NCBI GenBank assembly: GCA_946545675.1
Contig: CAMNNR010000019.1
Location: 1-13,859, forward strand
DNA: 13,859 nucleotides
Direction: 5' to 3'
Source of the DNA: an uncultured Thermoplasmata archaeon
GTDB lineage: Archaea; Thermoplasmatota; Thermoplasmata; Methanomassiliicoccales; Methanomethylophilaceae
Under the pieces are notes generated by a model that saw only the letters and a list, made by a program, of their open reading frames with translations, made no database searches and had not been told where the DNA came from. Positions 3,024 through 10,418 of the stretch are shown here, piece by piece (position 1 is the first letter of the stretch; each line of letters starts with the position of its first letter). Position numbers and translations under genes: made by a program.

Positions 3024-4046
3024 TCATTTAAGAATGTGTCTGGCTGAATCCAATATCTCCGAACTCAGGTCATCCGGTATCTGCAGATATGTGGATGCTT
3101 CTTCGATTGTCATTCCCCTATCCTTTACCAAATGGACTAGGGTGGAAACAAGAACCTGTTTGGCACCTTCGGCTTTACCCTTAGCTAAACCTTCAGACAA
3201 ACCTTCGGCCTTACCCTTAGCTAAACCTTCAGACAAACCTTCTACCTTCCCCTCAGCTAGACCTTCGGCTTTGCCCTCAGCTAGACCTTCGGCTTTGCCC
3301 TCGCGGAACCCGTGATTGTATGTCTCCTCATCCAGTGTTATCATGTCCCCAATCCTTCCCAAAATTGCATCATCTAGTGAAATTTTAAACTTATCTTTGA
3401 CGACTTCTTTACGTTTTTCCATCTTCATCGGTGAGAAAAGGGCGGCAGGAATCGCAGAGATCTCAGGGAGTTCTTCCCCATAAGGTCCAACGAATACCAT
3501 GATGATATTGAACGTGTCAAGAGGTTCCATGTATCTGTTGGGATCTCCGGCCAGACTTTCCGCCATCATCTTGTATCTTGTGACAGTGTTGCGGTATGCG
3601 GCTTTGGGATTCAATATGTACCAGATGCTGTAAACCTTGCGAAGTTCATCGTAATCTGATCCGGAGAATTCACTTCCTTTTTGAGCCGACACCATCCTCC
3701 CAAGATAGTATTCGGCACGTTTCCCAAGGGGGTATCCGGGAGATGGATCGTTCTGACCTTCCACGTTCACTATCACTTCGATATTCTCGTCTGAGTTCGG
3801 AATCTTAACAGTGAAAACGCTATCTGTCACTATGCTGCCATCTTCGGGGTCATGGTATTCAGTCTCTCTTCCTATGACAGTGATGTTATCGGCACCTATG
3901 TTAAGACAGTCCTTTATCGTACCGAAGTCTTTGTCCACGAATTCCTCTAGAGTGTAGCGCAGAAGCATGGACAACACATCACCGTTGTGAACAATCGCCT
4001 TGAATTCTTGATCCAGCAGAGTTTGTTTGTCATTTTCGGATTTCAC
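3024..4046 (-). CDS. Rpn family PD-(D/E)XK nuclease / putative transposase
   Basis: The 340-residue protein belongs to the Rpn (recombination-promoting nuclease, PD-(D/E)XK 'transposase') family. LDQEFKAIVHNGDVLSMLL opens the domain. Asp75 (TDSVFTV) and Glu96-Gly-Gln98 (VNVEGQN) fit the D...ExQ catalytic pattern, and GYPLGKRAEYYLGRMVS (about 104-120) is a family signature. A bridging region (about 150-234) leads to a repeat-rich linker of EGLAEGKAEGLSEG type (about 248-294) and a helical tail (295-340). The start is GTG at 4044-4046, chosen because GAGGTGAT, a perfect anti-16S match, lies three bases upstream. An internal ATG at 3344 (residue 235) with AAGGA eight bases before it could give a 106-residue C-terminal product. 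E. coli members cut DNA, and such genes are reported in phage defence; the role here is inferred. Confidence 0.85.
   Translation of the reverse strand: MKSENDKQTLLDQEFKAIVHNGDVLSMLLRYTLEEFVDKDFGTIKDCLNIGADNITVIGRETEYHDPEDGSIVTDSVFTVKIPNSDENIEVIVNVEGQNDPSPGYPLGKRAEYYLGRMVSAQKGSEFSGSDYDELRKVYSIWYILNPKAAYRNTVTRYKMMAESLAGDPNRYMEPLDTFNIIMVFVGPYGEELPEISAIPAALFSPMKMEKRKEVVKDKFKISLDDAILGRIGDMITLDEETYNHGFREGKAEGLAEGKAEGLAEGKVEGLSEGLAKGKAEGLSEGLAKGKAEGAKQVLVSTLVHLVKDRGMTIEEASTYLQIPDDLSSEILDSARHILK
3166..3306 (-). repeat. Tandem repeats coding for the Rpn linker (36-base and 24-base units)
   Basis: Two 36-base units (3166-3201 and 3202-3237) differ by a single base. They are followed by 24-base units at 3238-3261 and 3262-3285 and a partial one to 3306. 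All share the start CCTTCGGCTTT or a close variant and are multiples of three, so changes in unit number keep the frame. They encode the EGLAEGKAEGLSEGLAKGKA-like helical linker. Near-identity of the 36-base units points to recent slippage or unequal recombination. Confidence 0.85.
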
Positions 4047-5435: not shown

Positions 5436-6275
5436 GTGTCCACGGTAACCCCGGAACTCCTCTCGGAAGGGGAGGCGATTGTTAGCAGGCATGATGCGGA
5501 GGAGATCCACCGCTTCGGCGACAGGATCGTATCAGTGGAACCTGACAACTGGTTCGGTCTCTACGTCAGGGGAGTCGGTTACGGTCTGGAGATCGACCTG
5601 AAGAACGCTGTCGACTGCTGGACACGCAGTCTCGAGGGTATCGACGACGAGAGTTATGCGGAGAAGATGCTCCCGGGCATCGTGGATTCCCTTGCATTCT
5701 GCCTGAACCACATGAAAGGCGGTGAGATGGACGATTTCAAGTCCCTCGGGGAGCTCATATCCTCCCTCAACGGAATGCTTCCAGAGAGTGACGACGAGGT
5801 CATTGTCAATCCTGTCCTGGACAGGTCCGTGGAGTTCTTCAGCGCGCACCCCGCGGAGTTCCCGTTCACAGCTTACTATGCGCTCAAGGCATTCGTGATG
5901 ACCGCGTTCAGGGCCTATGTCGAGCTCAGGTTCTTTCCGGTCTTCTTCGGGAAGCTGAAGAATGCTGGGGATCACATCAAAGCGAACGCGGAGGAGCGTG
6001 TCGCCAATGCGATCGACACCGACTACCTATTCGTCGATACTCTGGTCAACGCCATCAACGGGGCCTTGGAATCGACTTCTGCGGAGGATCTCGATGCCAT
6101 CGAGGAATACTGGCTCGAGCACAAGGTCGATCCCTATCTGGCACATCTCATGCAGGCGTATCAGATGTCGGCTGCCATGGCGACTTCAGGCAAGTTCATG
6201 GGCAAGGTAGCGAAGACCGTCATGAACTCCGAGATCCCCCTGTTCATCAAGGCGTATCTCTCGCCCAAACACTGA
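5436..6275 (+). CDS. Hypothetical helical protein with a TPR-like N-terminus
   Basis: I do not recognise a named family for this 279-residue, mostly helical protein. Residues about 22-70 read like one to two tetratricopeptide repeats: paired helices around VEPDNWFGLYVRGVGYGLEIDLKNAVDCWTRSLE, with the usual small and aromatic positions. The middle (about 140-170) is rich in Phe, Tyr and Ala (FPFTAYYALKAFVMTAFRAYVELRFFPVFF), giving one hydrophobic helix pair but no clear signal peptide. The C-terminus is helical and ends SPKH. The start is GTG at 5436: GGAGTGA, spanning the UbiD stop codon, is well placed as its ribosome site, so it is translated with the decarboxylase. A scaffold or accessory role is possible but unsupported. 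Its TGA ends one base before the convergent kinase stop. Confidence 0.75.
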   Translation: MSTVTPELLSEGEAIVSRHDAEEIHRFGDRIVSVEPDNWFGLYVRGVGYGLEIDLKNAVDCWTRSLEGIDDESYAEKMLPGIVDSLAFCLNHMKGGEMDDFKSLGELISSLNGMLPESDDEVIVNPVLDRSVEFFSAHPAEFPFTAYYALKAFVMTAFRAYVELRFFPVFFGKLKNAGDHIKANAEERVANAIDTDYLFVDTLVNAINGALESTSAEDLDAIEEYWLEHKVDPYLAHLMQAYQMSAAMATSGKFMGKVAKTVMNSEIPLFIKAYLSPKH

Positions 6276-6276
6276 A

Positions 6277-7641
6277 TCATCTTTTGGGGATGAGCACGAC
6301 AGCCGTCGTGCCGGCCCCCACCTTACTCTTTATCTCGAACGTTCCACCCATCATGGTCTTCAGACGGGAGCTTAGGTTCTCCAGCCCCACATGGCTCCTT
6401 CCCGTATCCGTCGGGGCATCGGTATCGAAGCCCACCCCGTTGTCGGTGATGGTGATCCTGTGGGCGTTCTCCAGTTCCTCGGTGATGATGGTCACGGTCC
6501 CGCCCTCCTCCTTCTGGGTGATGCCGTGTTTGATCGCGTTCTCGACGATCATCTGCAGGGTCATGGGGGGCACCTTGAAGTCCCTGTCGGGGGTGACGAA
6601 CACCACGTCGATCTTGTCCTTGAAGCGGAGTTTCTCGAGACCGACATAGGTCATGACGTGTTCCAGTTCCTTTTCGAAGGGGATCGGGGCCGTCTGGGAG
6701 ATGGTGCTGATGTTCTCCCCGAGATAGGTCTTGAATTTGCTTATGGCCTCGACTGTCTCCGGGGGATTGCCCTCCATCTCCATGATGTTGCTAAGGGCCT
6801 CGTCGAGCAGTTCCGGTTCGATGCGGGAGACCATCACCGCCACCTTGTGTTCGGTGAGGGCGGCATCGTTCTTCAGGATCTTCATACCACGGTCCTGATA
6901 GATCTCCCCGTAGACCACCATTCCGACGGCCACCAGGGACAAGGTAGTGAAGGATGGTACGTGGAATGGCAGGGAGAGGACTCCGGTGACCAGGGGGATC
7001 AGGATGCATACGAATAGTGCGTTCCTGTGTCTAGTGGTCGTCGCATGGCACAGTGCCAGATATATGCAGATGAGGGATAGGAGCACGGTCGGGATGGTGA
7101 GCGTCCACCAGAAGAAGGTGTTCACATAGACCAGGCCATCGGGATAGAACGCGTAACCTGTCAGATAGTTCGTAATGGTCAGAACGACCTCGATGGTCAT
7201 GAGTGTGAGGGCGATCCACTTGTACTTGACGGCAAATCCTTCCTCCAGGTCCATTATCTCCATCTCGTAGTTTATGAAGAGGTAGAGGATGGGGGGAAGG
7301 ATCAGGTGCTCGATATGATAGACCGCATTGAGCATGGATATGTTATGATACAGATCCACGGCCAGCCAGTAGCAGTATTCCACGCAGAGACTGAAGTATG
7401 CCGCCGAGAGGAGGCACATGATATAGAACACGCTGTTGCTGATCCTCCGGTCGAAGTATATGGACATGAAGAGGATGAAACACACACCCATGCCCGCCCC
7501 TATGATTGATGTGCAGACGCATCCGAGGTCGCTGAAGCTGCCTATGGCCGGCAGCACTATCGCGAATAACATCACCGCGCTCAGGATCATGAGGGCGGAT
7601 ACCGCGATGCATATGGGGTTCCAGTAATCCTTCAGGTCCAT
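6277..7641 (-). CDS. Membrane LytS/His_kinase-type sensor with intact ATP site but no phosphoacceptor histidine
   Basis: The 454-residue protein has about seven membrane helices (residues ~10-245), then a dimerisation segment and a HATPase domain. Its ATP-binding motifs are intact: MIVENAIKHGI (N-box, Asn368), ITDNGVGFD (G1, Asp400, Gly402, Gly404) and GRSHVGLENLSSRL (G2, Gly419), ending MGGTFEIKSKVGAGTTAVV. The His_kinase (PF06580-type) box, normally QxQPHFLxN, reads RIEPELLDEAL here, so Glu277 stands where the histidine should be, and the flanking Tyr/Asn are also changed. It should bind ATP but cannot autophosphorylate in the usual way. The gene overlaps the last 10 bases of the partner sensor upstream and has AAGGAGGAT seven bases before its ATG. 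Both share layout and are clear paralogues. The best reading is a catalytic subunit that phosphorylates its partner's histidine; an ATP-gated regulator is the alternative. Confidence 0.88.
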   Translation of the reverse strand: MDLKDYWNPICIAVSALMILSAVMLFAIVLPAIGSFSDLGCVCTSIIGAGMGVCFILFMSIYFDRRISNSVFYIMCLLSAAYFSLCVEYCYWLAVDLYHNISMLNAVYHIEHLILPPILYLFINYEMEIMDLEEGFAVKYKWIALTLMTIEVVLTITNYLTGYAFYPDGLVYVNTFFWWTLTIPTVLLSLICIYLALCHATTTRHRNALFVCILIPLVTGVLSLPFHVPSFTTLSLVAVGMVVYGEIYQDRGMKILKNDAALTEHKVAVMVSRIEPELLDEALSNIMEMEGNPPETVEAISKFKTYLGENISTISQTAPIPFEKELEHVMTYVGLEKLRFKDKIDVVFVTPDRDFKVPPMTLQMIVENAIKHGITQKEEGGTVTIITEELENAHRITITDNGVGFDTDAPTDTGRSHVGLENLSSRLKTMMGGTFEIKSKVGAGTTAVVLIPKR

Positions 7642-9014
7642 AGGGTATCCTCCTTGATGGCAGGTATTCTGATTTTGCAGTGGATGGAACCGTCCTCGTG
7701 GAGTTCGTTCGTTATGTCGCCTCCGACCATGGACTGCAGGCGCTTCTGGAGTACCAATATGTCCTCCGTTGTGGACCCGACGAATTCCTTGGACATCTCG
7801 GACGGATTCATGTCGATGATGGATATCGTATGGTAGTCGTCCTCCAGATTGCTCAGGATGTCCATGCGCACGGTGCCGTCGCCCTCGCGGAGGTTCAATT
7901 CTATGGCCTGTTCCAGGATGATCTTGACGGTGAGCGGGGGGATGAAGAAGCCGCTGTTCTGGGCATCGATCCTGACGTCGATGCGGTCGGAGTATTTCTG
8001 TTTCAGAATCCCTATGTAGGTCTCCACGTGGTCGAGTTCCCTCGACACGGGTATGGGGTTGATTTGCCCCAGGGAGTCAAGGTTCTTGCGCATGTAGTGT
8101 CCGAACTCGGCGATGGCGTCACGGGTCTCCATGGGATTGCCCTTGATGTTCATGATGGCGGTGAGGGCGTTGTACAGGAAGTGGGGCTGGATCTGCGAGA
8201 CCATGACTGCGGCACGCTGTTCCGCCATCTCCGCCTCGTACTTTATGAGGTCGCCGCTGCGTCCGAGGTAGATGTTTGCATACATCACCACAAGCATCAG
8301 CATCATCGTCTGATATTGCAGGGAGGTACCGTAGCTGTAGACCTGCATGACCGCGCTCAGCAACGGTATCAGGACATATGCCAGGAATACGACTTTCCTC
8401 CTGAGTTCTTTCTCGTTGGCGAGTATGGTAACAGAACAGAATATGCCCTCCAACCCGGGGGCTGCGAAGGACATGAAGAATGCGTAACCGCGGGTGTATA
8501 TCCCGGTATCTGGGTCTATGGTGAAGTACCATCCCGTGACGAGGTTGAGCGCGACCGCCGCAAGACCTATAACGACTACTGTCCTCATCGGGATGCGGAG
8601 ACTCTCCATCAGTCTGCCGTCCCTGTATATCCCGTAGATGTACATCCAGAAGGTGTACGGCATGAGGATGAGGAGCGCATACATGAAGTGGTTGAGGAAT
8701 TCGGTCAGATAAATCATGGACGCGTTGCCGTCGAAGACCCATCCGAGGATGTCCCAGAAGAGAAGATTGTGTTCGAACACCAGGAGGAACAGGAAGGCCC
8801 GCGTGTTGGTGTTCCGGAGGCGGTCCTTGGATATCGAGACGAAGATCACGGTGCAGATTATCATCCCGAAGGCATCGCCGGAAATGTTGACGATGATCTG
8901 GTTGTCCATCACGGGCAGGTCGGCGATGATAATAAGCAAAATAGCCAGAGCACAGGAGGCAGCCATCAAGACTGCGGTCAGAATCTCGACCGTGTTTGCC
9001 CTTATCTGTCTCAT
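7632..9014 (-). CDS. Membrane LytS/His_kinase-type sensor with phosphoacceptor histidine but degenerate ATP site
   Basis: The 460-residue protein has about seven to eight membrane helices (~11-250) including the segment NLLFWDILGWVFDGN, then a linker helix and the His_kinase box SQIQPHFLYNALTAIMNI with His278 intact. The following HATPase-like domain has lost its nucleotide motifs. The N-box reads IILEQAIELNL (Asn replaced by Gln369, KHG replaced by ELN). G1 reads IIDMNPSEMS, keeping the Asp but none of the glycines. No G2 glycine motif is seen (TTEDILVLQKRLQSM). It is therefore probably unable to bind ATP and needs another kinase to phosphorylate His278. The start ATG at 9012-9014 has AGGAG about ten bases upstream. 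It is first in a two-gene operon with the complementary sensor. No response regulator lies beside it. Signal unknown. Confidence 0.88.
   Translation of the reverse strand: MRQIRANTVEILTAVLMAASCALAILLIIIADLPVMDNQIIVNISGDAFGMIICTVIFVSISKDRLRNTNTRAFLFLLVFEHNLLFWDILGWVFDGNASMIYLTEFLNHFMYALLILMPYTFWMYIYGIYRDGRLMESLRIPMRTVVVIGLAAVALNLVTGWYFTIDPDTGIYTRGYAFFMSFAAPGLEGIFCSVTILANEKELRRKVVFLAYVLIPLLSAVMQVYSYGTSLQYQTMMLMLVVMYANIYLGRSGDLIKYEAEMAEQRAAVMVSQIQPHFLYNALTAIMNIKGNPMETRDAIAEFGHYMRKNLDSLGQINPIPVSRELDHVETYIGILKQKYSDRIDVRIDAQNSGFFIPPLTVKIILEQAIELNLREGDGTVRMDILSNLEDDYHTISIIDMNPSEMSKEFVGSTTEDILVLQKRLQSMVGGDITNELHEDGSIHCKIRIPAIKEDTLWT
7647..7655 (-). promoter_or_regulatory. Strong Shine-Dalgarno site for the second sensor gene
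   Basis: The minus strand reads AAGGAGGAT, seven bases from the GGAGG core to the ATG at 7641, inside the 3' end of the upstream sensor gene. It shows the second gene is reinitiated at high efficiency on the same message, which favours matched amounts of the two proteins. Confidence 0.75.
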
Positions 9015-9113: not shown

Positions 9114-10418
9114 TCAGTTCCACCAGTCTGCCTTGCGGCCGATGGTCTCATCCCTGTCGGGTCCGAGGGAGATGATGTCGGCCGGGGTGCCGGTCTCTTT
9201 CTCGATGAAGGCGATGTAGTCCTTCATCTCCTTGGGGAGTGCGTCGTATCCTCCCTTCACGAGGGCCTCGGTGTCGTCCCATCCCTTCCATCCCTTGAGG
9301 GTGGTGTAGACGGGTTTGGCCCTCTCGAGCTTCTTGATGGATGCGGGGAAGTACCTGGTCTTCTGACCGTCGATCTCGTAGGCGGTGCACACGGGCAGTT
9401 CCTCGTAGTCGTTGAGGACGTCGAGCTTGGTGATGGCGAGGTTGTCGAATCCGCAGAGGGTCTTGGCGTGGTTGACCACGACGAGGTCGAGCCATCCGCA
9501 CCTCCTTCCCCTTCCGGTGGTTACTCCGAACTCTCCGCCCTTCTTCTGGAGGCTCTCCTCCTCTTCGCCGTGGAGCTCGGTCACGAAGGGGCCCTCTCCG
9601 ACGTGGGTGGTGTAGGCCTTGACGACTCCCATGCAGTGGTTGAGCCTGCTGGGGGCGATTCCGGAACCGGTGCAGATTCCTCCGCCGGTGGTGGAGGATG
9701 AAGTAACGAAGGGGTAGGTTCCGTGGTCGATGTCGAGCATGGCACCCTGGGCACCCTCGAGCATGACGTTCTTGCCCTCGTCGAGGGATTCGTTGATGAG
9801 AACGCCGGTGTCCACGATGTACCTTCCGAGTTTCTCTCCCCATCCGGTCATCTTGTCGAGCAGGGATTCAACGGTGCAGCTGCATCCCTCGGCATCGAGC
9901 ATGTTCATGAGGTCTTTCTTGTAGGGGAGGAGCAGGGAGATCTTCTCCTCGAGGGTCTCCTTCTCCAGCAGGTCGCCGGCCCTGAATCCGATCCTGGCGA
10001 TCTTGTCCTGGTAGCTGGGTCCGATACCCTTCTTGGTGGTTCCGACGGGCTTTTTGCCGCGGTATTTCTCCTCGGCGCCGTCGAGCTTCTTGTGATAGTT
10101 CATGATGAGTGCGGCACGGTCGGAGATCCTGAGTCCCTCGATGCTGCCTCCGGCCTCCTCGACGCCCTTGATCTCGTCGAGGAGCTCCTCGATGTTGACC
10201 ACGGTACCGTTACCGATGACGGCCAGCTTGCCGGGCCTGACGACTCCCGATGGGAGTCCGTGGAGTTTGAAAACCTTGTCGCCGACGACGATCGTGTGTC
10301 CGGCGTTGTTGCCTCCCTGGAAACGGACGATGAGGTCCGCTTTCTCATCGAGGTAGTCTATGATCTTTCCTTTACCTTCGTCGCCCCATTGGGACCCGAT
10401 GACTGCTAGGCTCGGCAT
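9114..10418 (-). CDS. purA: Adenylosuccinate synthetase
   Basis: This enzyme joins IMP and aspartate with GTP hydrolysis to make adenylosuccinate, the first committed step from IMP to AMP. The 434-residue sequence opens MPSLAVIGSQWGDEGKGKIIDYL, the GTP/IMP-binding signature with catalytic Asp13. GGNNAGHT (about 35-42) holds the second catalytic residue, His41. The VGTTKKGIGPSY motif, LEGAQGAMLDIDHGTYPFVTSS and TTGRGRRCGWLDLVVV all match the family, as does the length. The ATG at 10416-10418 starts right at the signature and sits about 33 bases after a TATA box with no Shine-Dalgarno motif, so it is probably leaderless. It is its own transcription unit, in the same direction as trm1 upstream and the sensor pair downstream. 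Confidence 0.97.
   Translation of the reverse strand: MPSLAVIGSQWGDEGKGKIIDYLDEKADLIVRFQGGNNAGHTIVVGDKVFKLHGLPSGVVRPGKLAVIGNGTVVNIEELLDEIKGVEEAGGSIEGLRISDRAALIMNYHKKLDGAEEKYRGKKPVGTTKKGIGPSYQDKIARIGFRAGDLLEKETLEEKISLLLPYKKDLMNMLDAEGCSCTVESLLDKMTGWGEKLGRYIVDTGVLINESLDEGKNVMLEGAQGAMLDIDHGTYPFVTSSSTTGGGICTGSGIAPSRLNHCMGVVKAYTTHVGEGPFVTELHGEEEESLQKKGGEFGVTTGRGRRCGWLDLVVVNHAKTLCGFDNLAITKLDVLNDYEELPVCTAYEIDGQKTRYFPASIKKLERAKPVYTTLKGWKGWDDTEALVKGGYDALPKEMKDYIAFIEKETGTPADIISLGPDRDETIGRKADWWN

What the first reader, a model, noticed from the sequence alone, without database searches (positions are those of the whole stretch)
6277..9014. Two overlapping sensor kinases with complementary losses: one keeps the histidine, the other keeps the ATP site
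Seen directly: the first gene's protein has PHFLYN with His278, but its HATPase domain lacks the N-box Asn (ILEQAIELN) and the glycines of G1 (IIDMNPSEMS) and G2. The second has VENAIKHGI, DNGVGFD and SHVGLENL intact, but EPELLDEAL in place of the histidine box. Both share the same membrane-plus-kinase layout and overlap by 10 bases. Known precedent for division of labour: the CheA3/CheA4 pair of Rhodobacter, where one protein has the ATPase and the other the phosphorylated domain. Inference: a duplicated LytS-type kinase in which each copy lost one half, giving an obligate heterodimer that signals only when both are present. I know of no described archaeal LytS-type pair like this.
Basis: partly seen in the sequence, partly recalled or inferred. 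Interest (0 to 1): 0.88.

Follow-up and report, generated by a model that had tools for sequence, protein, structure and literature searches.

The report
Two half-kinases sharing one job
A group of gut methane-making archaea carries pairs of sensor kinases in which one partner keeps the phosphate-accepting histidine and the other the ATP-using site, so that they look able to signal only together; the same division recurs in related species and at more than one place in the genome.

Summary
K1 (7632-9014, minus) keeps His278 but has lost the ATP site; K2 (6277-7641, minus) keeps the ATP site but has Glu277 instead of the histidine; the genes overlap by 10 bp. The pattern is conserved. In six genomes of the genus I found 12 K1/K2 pairs at three kinds of locus: K1 kept His in 12 of 12, K2 lacked it in 12 of 12, and the K1 ATP site was destroyed in 10 of 12; the other two (4/5 and 5/5 key residues) look like intermediates. 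Of 377 scoreable proteins none had lost both halves. The His domain is better conserved in K1 than in K2, the ATP domain far better in K2. A sister genus has a pair with both copies complete. In one closed genome (99% complete) the two K2s are the only histidine-kinase ATP domains that my profile searches found, and there is one full response regulator. Best reading: a split LytS-type histidine kinase, K2 phosphorylating K1 in trans, most likely as a heterodimer. No biochemistry supports this yet. Closest precedents are CheA3/CheA4 and Streptococcus FasB/FasC; I saw no archaeal case in what my paper searches listed.

The parts
7632..9014 (-). K1: membrane histidine kinase-like protein, 460 aa; phosphoacceptor half (A-K1)
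8169..8189 (-). K1 H box QPHFLYN, His278 at 8181-8183; Asn at His+4 also kept
7893..7919 (-). K1 degenerate N box ILEQAIELN (Gln in place of Asn)
7791..7820 (-). K1 degenerate G1 box IIDMNPSEMS (Asp kept, both glycines lost)
6277..7641 (-). K2: membrane histidine kinase-like protein, 454 aa; ATP half (A-K2)
6799..6819 (-). K2 position of the H box: EPELLDE, Glu277 instead of His
6520..6546 (-). K2 intact N box VENAIKHGI
6424..6444 (-). K2 intact G1 box DNGVGFD
6373..6396 (-). K2 intact G2 box SHVGLENL
7632..7641 (-). 10-bp overlap of K1 end and K2 start (translational coupling plausible, inferred)

Best explanation
K1 and K2 are the two halves of a split LytS-type (PF06580) histidine kinase. 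Both are membrane proteins with about seven to eight predicted helices up to the signalling helix. They pair through their DHp helices; the ATP-binding domain of K2 phosphorylates His278 of K1 in trans; K1~P then passes the phosphoryl group to a response regulator (REC plus a weakly scoring winged-helix domain) encoded at a second locus (locus B) beside a second, paralogous split pair. K1 keeps the Asn at His+4, so K1 without K2 may act as the regulator's phosphatase. Shown here by sequence: the complementary losses, their conservation and co-occurrence, the opposite constraint on the two domains, a complete-copy relative, and the gene inventory of a closed genome. Inferred: dimerisation, trans-phosphorylation, the link of locus A to the locus B regulator, the phosphatase role. 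Not known: the signal and the target genes.
For: Twelve pairs in six genomes: His kept in K1 12 of 12, absent in K2 12 of 12; K1 ATP residues 2/5 or fewer in 10 of 12. Of 384 aligned proteins 377 could be scored: 53 of 53 without His keep 5/5 ATP residues, and 53 of 53 with 3/5 or fewer ATP residues keep His (rows partly redundant). Mean identity within orthologue groups, DHp / ATP domain: A-K1 0.70 / 0.36, A-K2 0.59 / 0.62, B-K1 0.68 / 0.32, B-K2 0.60 / 0.63. In closed G037 the PF02518 hits over the cut-off are the two K2s, gyrase B, Hsp90, Topo VI B and a 626-aa frame with only HATPase families; HisKA, HisKA_3 and HATPase_c_5 give no match and HATPase_c_2 only weak ones in the two K2s; one REC over the cut-off. 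Both copies complete in G074. Bacterial relatives: His in 79 of 79.
Against: No biochemical or interaction data. One K1 (G041 locus B) keeps 5/5 ATP residues and one (G043 locus B) 4/5, so those could still work as homodimers. One K2-type database protein (P0138) has a His letter (EPHFLSE), though the Tyr and Asn of the box are gone. Locus A carries no response regulator. K2 itself conserves its two domains about equally, and in G000 against G045 its dN/dS is lower in DHp (0.20) than in the ATP domain (0.28). The K1 ATP domain is still predicted to fold, so loss of ATP binding rests on motif residues. dS is near or above 1 in several comparisons.
Confidence: 0.8

Rival explanations
1. Trans-phosphorylation without a heterodimer: K2 homodimers phosphorylate K1 homodimers as a separate substrate.
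For: Sequence does not show which dimers form; the complementarity data fit this as well.
Against: The DHp domain stays conserved in both partners, and the genes overlap or abut in four locus A copies. FasB and FasC form heterodimers and no homodimers in a two-hybrid test (PMC12675982, passages).
Confidence: 0.12
2. K2 is a pseudo-histidine kinase regulator of the RetS or DivL kind and K1 a phosphatase or phosphate sink; phosphate enters elsewhere, or K2 acts on another residue.
For: Tyr stands in the His column of 16 of the 53 His-less rows of the tree set, as recalled for DivL; inhibitory kinase heterodimers are known (PMC12189002, passages).
Against: K2 keeps all five ATP residues in 53 of 53 scoreable His-less rows; the profile searches of the closed genome found no other histidine-kinase ATP domain; the His column of K2 drifts among E, Y, D, R, N, A, K and T while the His of K1 is kept.
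Confidence: 0.06
3. The kinases are decaying and the losses are only pseudogenisation.
For: K1 ATP domains diverge fast (dN/dS 0.28-0.58); G043 B-K2 has an in-frame TAG and the G046 B-K2 frame departs from its relatives after the G2 box.
Against: Open frames in the other genomes; no scoreable protein lost both halves; dN/dS below 1 in every comparison made; strongest constraint on K1's His domain; K1 still predicted to fold.
Confidence: 0.02

Closest known systems
FasB/FasC of Streptococcus pyogenes (PMC12675982; abstract, passages, sections 2.1 and 2.3 seen)
   Same: Two membrane kinase-like proteins encoded together; heterodimerise; FasC needs only its TM and DHp parts with His246, its ATP domain being dispensable; the authors propose that FasB supplies the kinase domain; one response regulator.
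   Different: Bacterial. FasB still has histidines in its DHp, so the losses are not complementary by sequence as here. One pair only; no series of decay stages in what I read.
CheA3/CheA4 of Rhodobacter sphaeroides (PMC3591291; abstract, passages, discussion seen)
   Same: ATP binding and phosphoacceptor functions on two proteins; neither autophosphorylates alone; the mixture labels CheA3.
   Different: CheA family, cytoplasmic cluster, whole domains absent. Here both partners keep all domains and lose catalytic residues, in membrane LytS-type proteins.
AlgZ/FimS of Pseudomonas aeruginosa (PMC4064291; passages seen)
   Same: LytS-like kinase with an H box but no identifiable G1, F and G2 boxes.
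   Different: No His-less, ATP-competent partner mentioned in the passages seen.
RdmS and MsmS of Methanosarcina acetivorans (PMC11784639; start of abstract and passages seen)
   Same: Archaeal kinases that lack the H box; RdmS binds and hydrolyses ATP but is no autokinase; the authors suggest an outside phosphorylation target.
   Different: RdmS is a cytoplasmic orphan kinase; no His-bearing partner kinase named in the passages seen.
'HisKA, no HATPase' proteins of archaea (PMC5847659; passages seen)
   Same: Archaeal proteins with a conserved His but no recognisable ATPase domain.
   Different: No ATP-bearing partner named in the passages seen.

Membership tests
LytS/YehU-type histidine kinase (PF06580) | PF06580 domain over Pfam cut-off | tested here: met
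   K1 60.0 bits, K2 38.6 bits, cut-off 25.2
LytS/YehU-type histidine kinase (PF06580) | phosphoacceptor His in the PHFLxN box | tested here: inconclusive
   met by K1 (His278), not met by K2 (Glu277): the feature is divided between the two
LytS/YehU-type histidine kinase (PF06580) | HATPase_c domain with N, G1, G2 boxes | tested here: inconclusive
   met by K2, not met by K1: the feature is divided between the two
LytS/YehU-type histidine kinase (PF06580) | LytTR response regulator as partner (usual, recalled) | tested here: not met
   no LytTR in the window's genome, which is 70.6% complete; the locus B regulator is REC plus sub-threshold Trans_reg_C
Split histidine kinase (CheA3/CheA4 type) | phosphoacceptor and ATP functions on two different proteins | tested here: met
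   by residue inventory: 12 of 12 K2 without His, 10 of 12 K1 without ATP site
Split histidine kinase (CheA3/CheA4 type) | neither protein autophosphorylates alone; the mixture phosphorylates the His partner | not testable with these tools
   needs purified proteins
Split histidine kinase (CheA3/CheA4 type) | CheA domain architecture | tested here: not met
   over the cut-offs PF06580 and HATPase_c only
FasBC-type kinase heterodimer | two TM-DHp-HATPase proteins encoded together with one response regulator | tested here: inconclusive
   locus B has both kinases and the regulator; locus A (this window) has no regulator
FasBC-type kinase heterodimer | heterodimer, no homodimer | not testable with these tools
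   no interaction assay; the folding tool takes one chain

The most novel reading that the evidence does not exclude
Each of these archaea runs its one conventional two-component pathway from four half-kinases (two split pairs) feeding one response regulator. Matched and crossed pairs (A-K1 with B-K2 and the reverse) could form a combinatorial coincidence detector, and phosphatase action by free K1 could make the switch bistable, as modelled for CheA3/CheA4. The lineage also preserves the route: complete tandem kinases, then a His-less partner with a still complete K1, then decay of the K1 ATP site more than once.
Probability: 0.3. Interest if true: 0.87.

Novelty: new variant of a known kind. 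Interest (0 to 1): 0.75.

Why it matters
Split kinases are rare in print. Here the division is visible across several species of a genus, with paralogous loci, intermediates and a complete-copy relative, so the question of how two interdependent halves evolve from a self-sufficient kinase becomes testable on natural stages. It would also be the first complementary kinase pair in archaea that I could find (ten paper searches, listings capped). The hosts look like gut and rumen methanogens, and closed genome G037 matches in length that of ISO4-H5, which as I recall is grown in the laboratory.

Tried and rejected
Tree order of the paralogue groups: in the full-length quick tree all 53 His-less rows plus P0138 fall in one clade, SH-aLRT 95, but the ATP domain is part of the trait. 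Without the ATP domain and H box the order of the groups is unresolved (63 rows chosen by me). There, all K2 together already form one side of a branch with weak support (79/84), and AU tests accept each of the three other groupings tried: all K1, locus A, locus B (p 0.61-0.76). So I do not claim one or two losses of His, nor that K1 and K2 of this locus are sister copies. Fewest changes on that tree: 2 for His (P0138 accounts for one), 3 for the ATP site.

LytTR regulator in own genome: none. NCBIfam gave no match over a cut-off for either kinase. Sensor identity: the top 50 PDB fold matches for each model were kinases or kinase-like proteins and none names the sensor, so the ligand is unknown. 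Wider search: in a phylum-wide draw 4 of 389 genomes had a PF06580 match, 3 of them in this genus and one below the cut-off.

Rows left out or moved: 14 near-duplicates or fragments were dropped from the tree set before the counts (listed). I therefore recounted all 384 aligned rows. Seven could not be scored; two of these (P0144, 330 aa, and the upstream piece of G043 B-K2) lack both the His and, in that frame, the ATP domain. P0032 (His, 2/5) lies outside the K1 clades and its partner is unknown. P0245, which I first listed as B-K1, goes with the solo complete kinase L037. P0247 is placed in B-K1 with weak support only. L036 is not in the 12 pairs. Two dN/dS comparisons were out of frame and were redone.

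This is circumstantial and kept apart from the 12 seen in DNA. In those 8, K1 has 3/5 or fewer ATP residues in 8 and K2 lacks His in 7 (P0138 is the exception).

Literature on an archaeal or LytS-type complementary pair: ten searches listed none that I recognised; most listings were capped, several searches had other aims, and the library lacks most subscription papers.
Full report
WHAT IS THERE. Two genes on the minus strand, K1 (7632-9014, 460 aa) and K2 (6277-7641, 454 aa), overlap by 10 bp. They lie downstream of an adenylosuccinate synthetase gene (9114-10418, same strand). K2 runs tail to tail with a 279-aa gene without a Pfam match (5436-6275), which follows a UbiD-family gene. Both models show seven to eight long helices up to the signalling helix, then the DHp (PF06580) and ATPase-type domains; mean pLDDT is 88.8 (K1) and 87.0 (K2). 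The closest PDB relative by sequence is 6swj, the GanS kinase domain, which is also first for K1 and third for K2 by fold. K1 has His278 in QPHFLYN but no N, G1 or G2 residues beyond the G1 Asp. K2 has intact N, G1 and G2 boxes but Glu277 in the His column.

CONSERVATION. PF06580 occurs in 7 of 147 genomes searched in the order: 6 of 14 in this genus and 1 in another genus. I fetched DNA around all matches and aligned 30 gene products or fragments. Locus A, the tandem of this window, is present in G000, G045, G043, G037 and G046 (in G046 on two contigs). Locus B has a K1-type gene facing a K2-type gene, with a response regulator next to K2, in G000, G037, G045, G043 and G041; G046 has the same genes on two contigs. 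G041 has a third, divergent tandem with its own regulator (L038). That makes 12 pairs. K1 keeps His in 12 of 12. K2 lacks it in 12 of 12, with Glu, Tyr, Ala, Asn or Arg there. K1 keeps 2 or fewer of 5 key ATP residues in 10 of 12; the others are 4/5 (G043 B) and 5/5 (G041 B). K2 keeps 5/5 in the 11 that could be scored in one frame; in G043 B an in-frame TAG splits the gene and the downstream piece has 5/5 too. G074 has a tandem pair with both proteins complete, next to a response regulator. G041 also has a solo complete kinase (L037).

DATABASE PROTEINS. Searches with K1, K2 and one B-K1 gave 501, 999 and 267 hits; the best 120 of each were listed and used. Together with the locus rows that is 384 aligned proteins, partly redundant, of which 377 could be scored: no His with 5/5, 53; no His with fewer, 0; His with 5/5, 263; His with 4/5, 8; His with 3/5 or fewer, 53. 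The 263 are largely bacterial-type relatives. In the 132-row tree set the residue in the His column of the 53 His-less rows is E 19, Y 16, D 6, R 5, N 3, A 2, K 1, T 1. One K2-type protein, P0138, has a His letter in a broken box (EPHFLSE). Control: 79 of 79 scoreable PF06580 proteins in 78 bacterial loci have the His; 70 have 4-5 of 5 ATP residues, 8 have 3, 1 has 2. Those loci had been picked by ATP-site patterns, so the control is fair for the His and not for the ATP site.

OPPOSITE CONSTRAINT. Mean pairwise identity (DHp / ATP domain): A-K1 0.70 / 0.36 (11 proteins), A-K2 0.59 / 0.62 (11), B-K1 0.68 / 0.32 (7), B-K2 0.60 / 0.63 (7) (representatives chosen by me). So DHp is best kept in K1 and the ATP domain in K2; within K2 the two are about even. 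Ratios from dN and dS (DHp, ATP domain), G037 against G046: A-K1 0.08, 0.33; A-K2 0.29, 0.18; B-K1 0.10, 0.28. G000 against G045: A-K1 0.18, 0.58; A-K2 0.20, 0.28, so here K2's ATP domain is not the slower one. G037 against G041: B-K2 0.41, 0.28. K1's ATP domain is relaxed but not free, and is still predicted to fold; it may be kept for packing or regulator docking (inference). The Asn at His+4 is kept in 20 of 20 K1 rows and 2 of 20 K2 rows (12 DNA pairs plus 8 circumstantial ones). A phosphatase motif HE/DxxN/T is cited for HisKA kinases in PMC3591291 (discussion); that the Asn serves so here is inference.

HISTORY. With the ATP domain and H box removed, A-K1, A-K2 and B-K1 are each one clade with bootstrap 100, but their order is unresolved. 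Within B-K1 the ATP site runs from 5/5 (G041) through 4/5 (G043, P0033, P0243 and, weakly placed, P0247; each lacks the N-box Asn), 3/5 (P0241) to 1-2/5. A-K1 is a separate, fully decayed clade. If an ATP site is not regained, it was therefore lost at least twice in K1 types. G041 B shows a His-less K2 beside a still complete K1; that His was lost first there is an inference.

WHOLE-GENOME INVENTORY. G037 is one contig of 1,937,883 bases, 99% complete. In it PF06580 occurs four times. HATPase_c over the cut-off occurs in the two K2s and four other proteins: gyrase B, Hsp90, Topo VI B and a 626-aa frame (cut by the fetched stretch) with only HATPase families; B-K1 scores just below the cut-off. 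HisKA, HisKA_3 and HATPase_c_5 give no match in any of the seven genomes. HATPase_c_2 in G037 matches only the two K2s, weakly; in G041, G043 and G074 it also matches strongly in frames of 640-756 aa that I did not examine. One REC domain in G037 is over the cut-off, beside B-K2; a second, weak and partial one sits in a 302-aa frame of a kind also seen in relatives. The eight genomes of the genus without PF06580 have no REC match better than E 2e-8, against 4e-21 or better in the six with it, which fits kinases and regulator coming and going together. In seven regulators of this type the REC Asp, Thr and Lys read as conserved (my reading of the alignment).

MECHANISM. K1 seems unable to use ATP, K2 has no histidine to receive phosphate, and my searches of the closed genome found no other histidine-kinase ATP domain. 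Phosphate should therefore enter from K2 to K1. I put 0.8 on trans-phosphorylation within a K1:K2 complex. Shown: residues, conservation, co-occurrence, inventory. Inferred: dimer, transfer, locus A using the locus B regulator, phosphatase action of K1.

WHAT IS KNOWN. Split kinases are known from CheA3/CheA4 (PMC3591291: abstract, passages, discussion). FasB/FasC (PMC12675982: abstract, passages, sections 2.1 and 2.3) is the nearest: heterodimer by two-hybrid, FasC ATP domain dispensable, His246 needed. In archaea, H-box-less ATP-binding kinases (PMC11784639, start of abstract and passages) and His-bearing proteins without ATPase (PMC5847659, passages) are described, without paired partners in what I saw. 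Ten paper searches (listings mostly capped) showed no archaeal or LytS-type complementary pair. I therefore rate this a new variant of a known kind.

Noticed in passing
L035:6928-6930 (minus), G043 locus B K2: An in-frame TAG at the position of a conserved Tyr splits this K2; the order is known for pyrrolysine at UAG (recalled), so read-through is conceivable.
   Followed up: no
L031:7388-8119 (+) and matches in L029, L033, L035, L039, and in pieces L041, L042: A roughly 245-aa protein follows B-K1 in the six locus B copies (in G046 in two pieces on two contigs; in G037 overlapping B-K1 by 4 bp) and had no Pfam match in G037; it may belong to the signalling system.
   Followed up: partly
window 5436-6275 (+) and matches in L030, L032, L034, L036, L043: A 279-aa protein without Pfam match ends next to K2 tail to tail and is conserved beside locus A.
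   Followed up: partly
L038:1122-5449 (G041 contig C21): A third, very divergent split pair (APHFLFN / FPEDLSR) with its own response regulator.
   Followed up: partly
window 3024-4046 (-): 340-aa ORF with sub-threshold Yae1_N and PDDEXK_2 matches and repeated GLAEGKAEG-like units.
   Followed up: no
P0161, P0163, P0166: A further deep group of His-less K2-like proteins (QPKFVNS, QPEFVST, QPRFIKT) of unnamed source, without identified partners.
   Followed up: no
G043:C90, G074:C9, G041:C79: HATPase_c_2 domains over the cut-off in frames of 640-756 aa, nature unknown.
   Followed up: no
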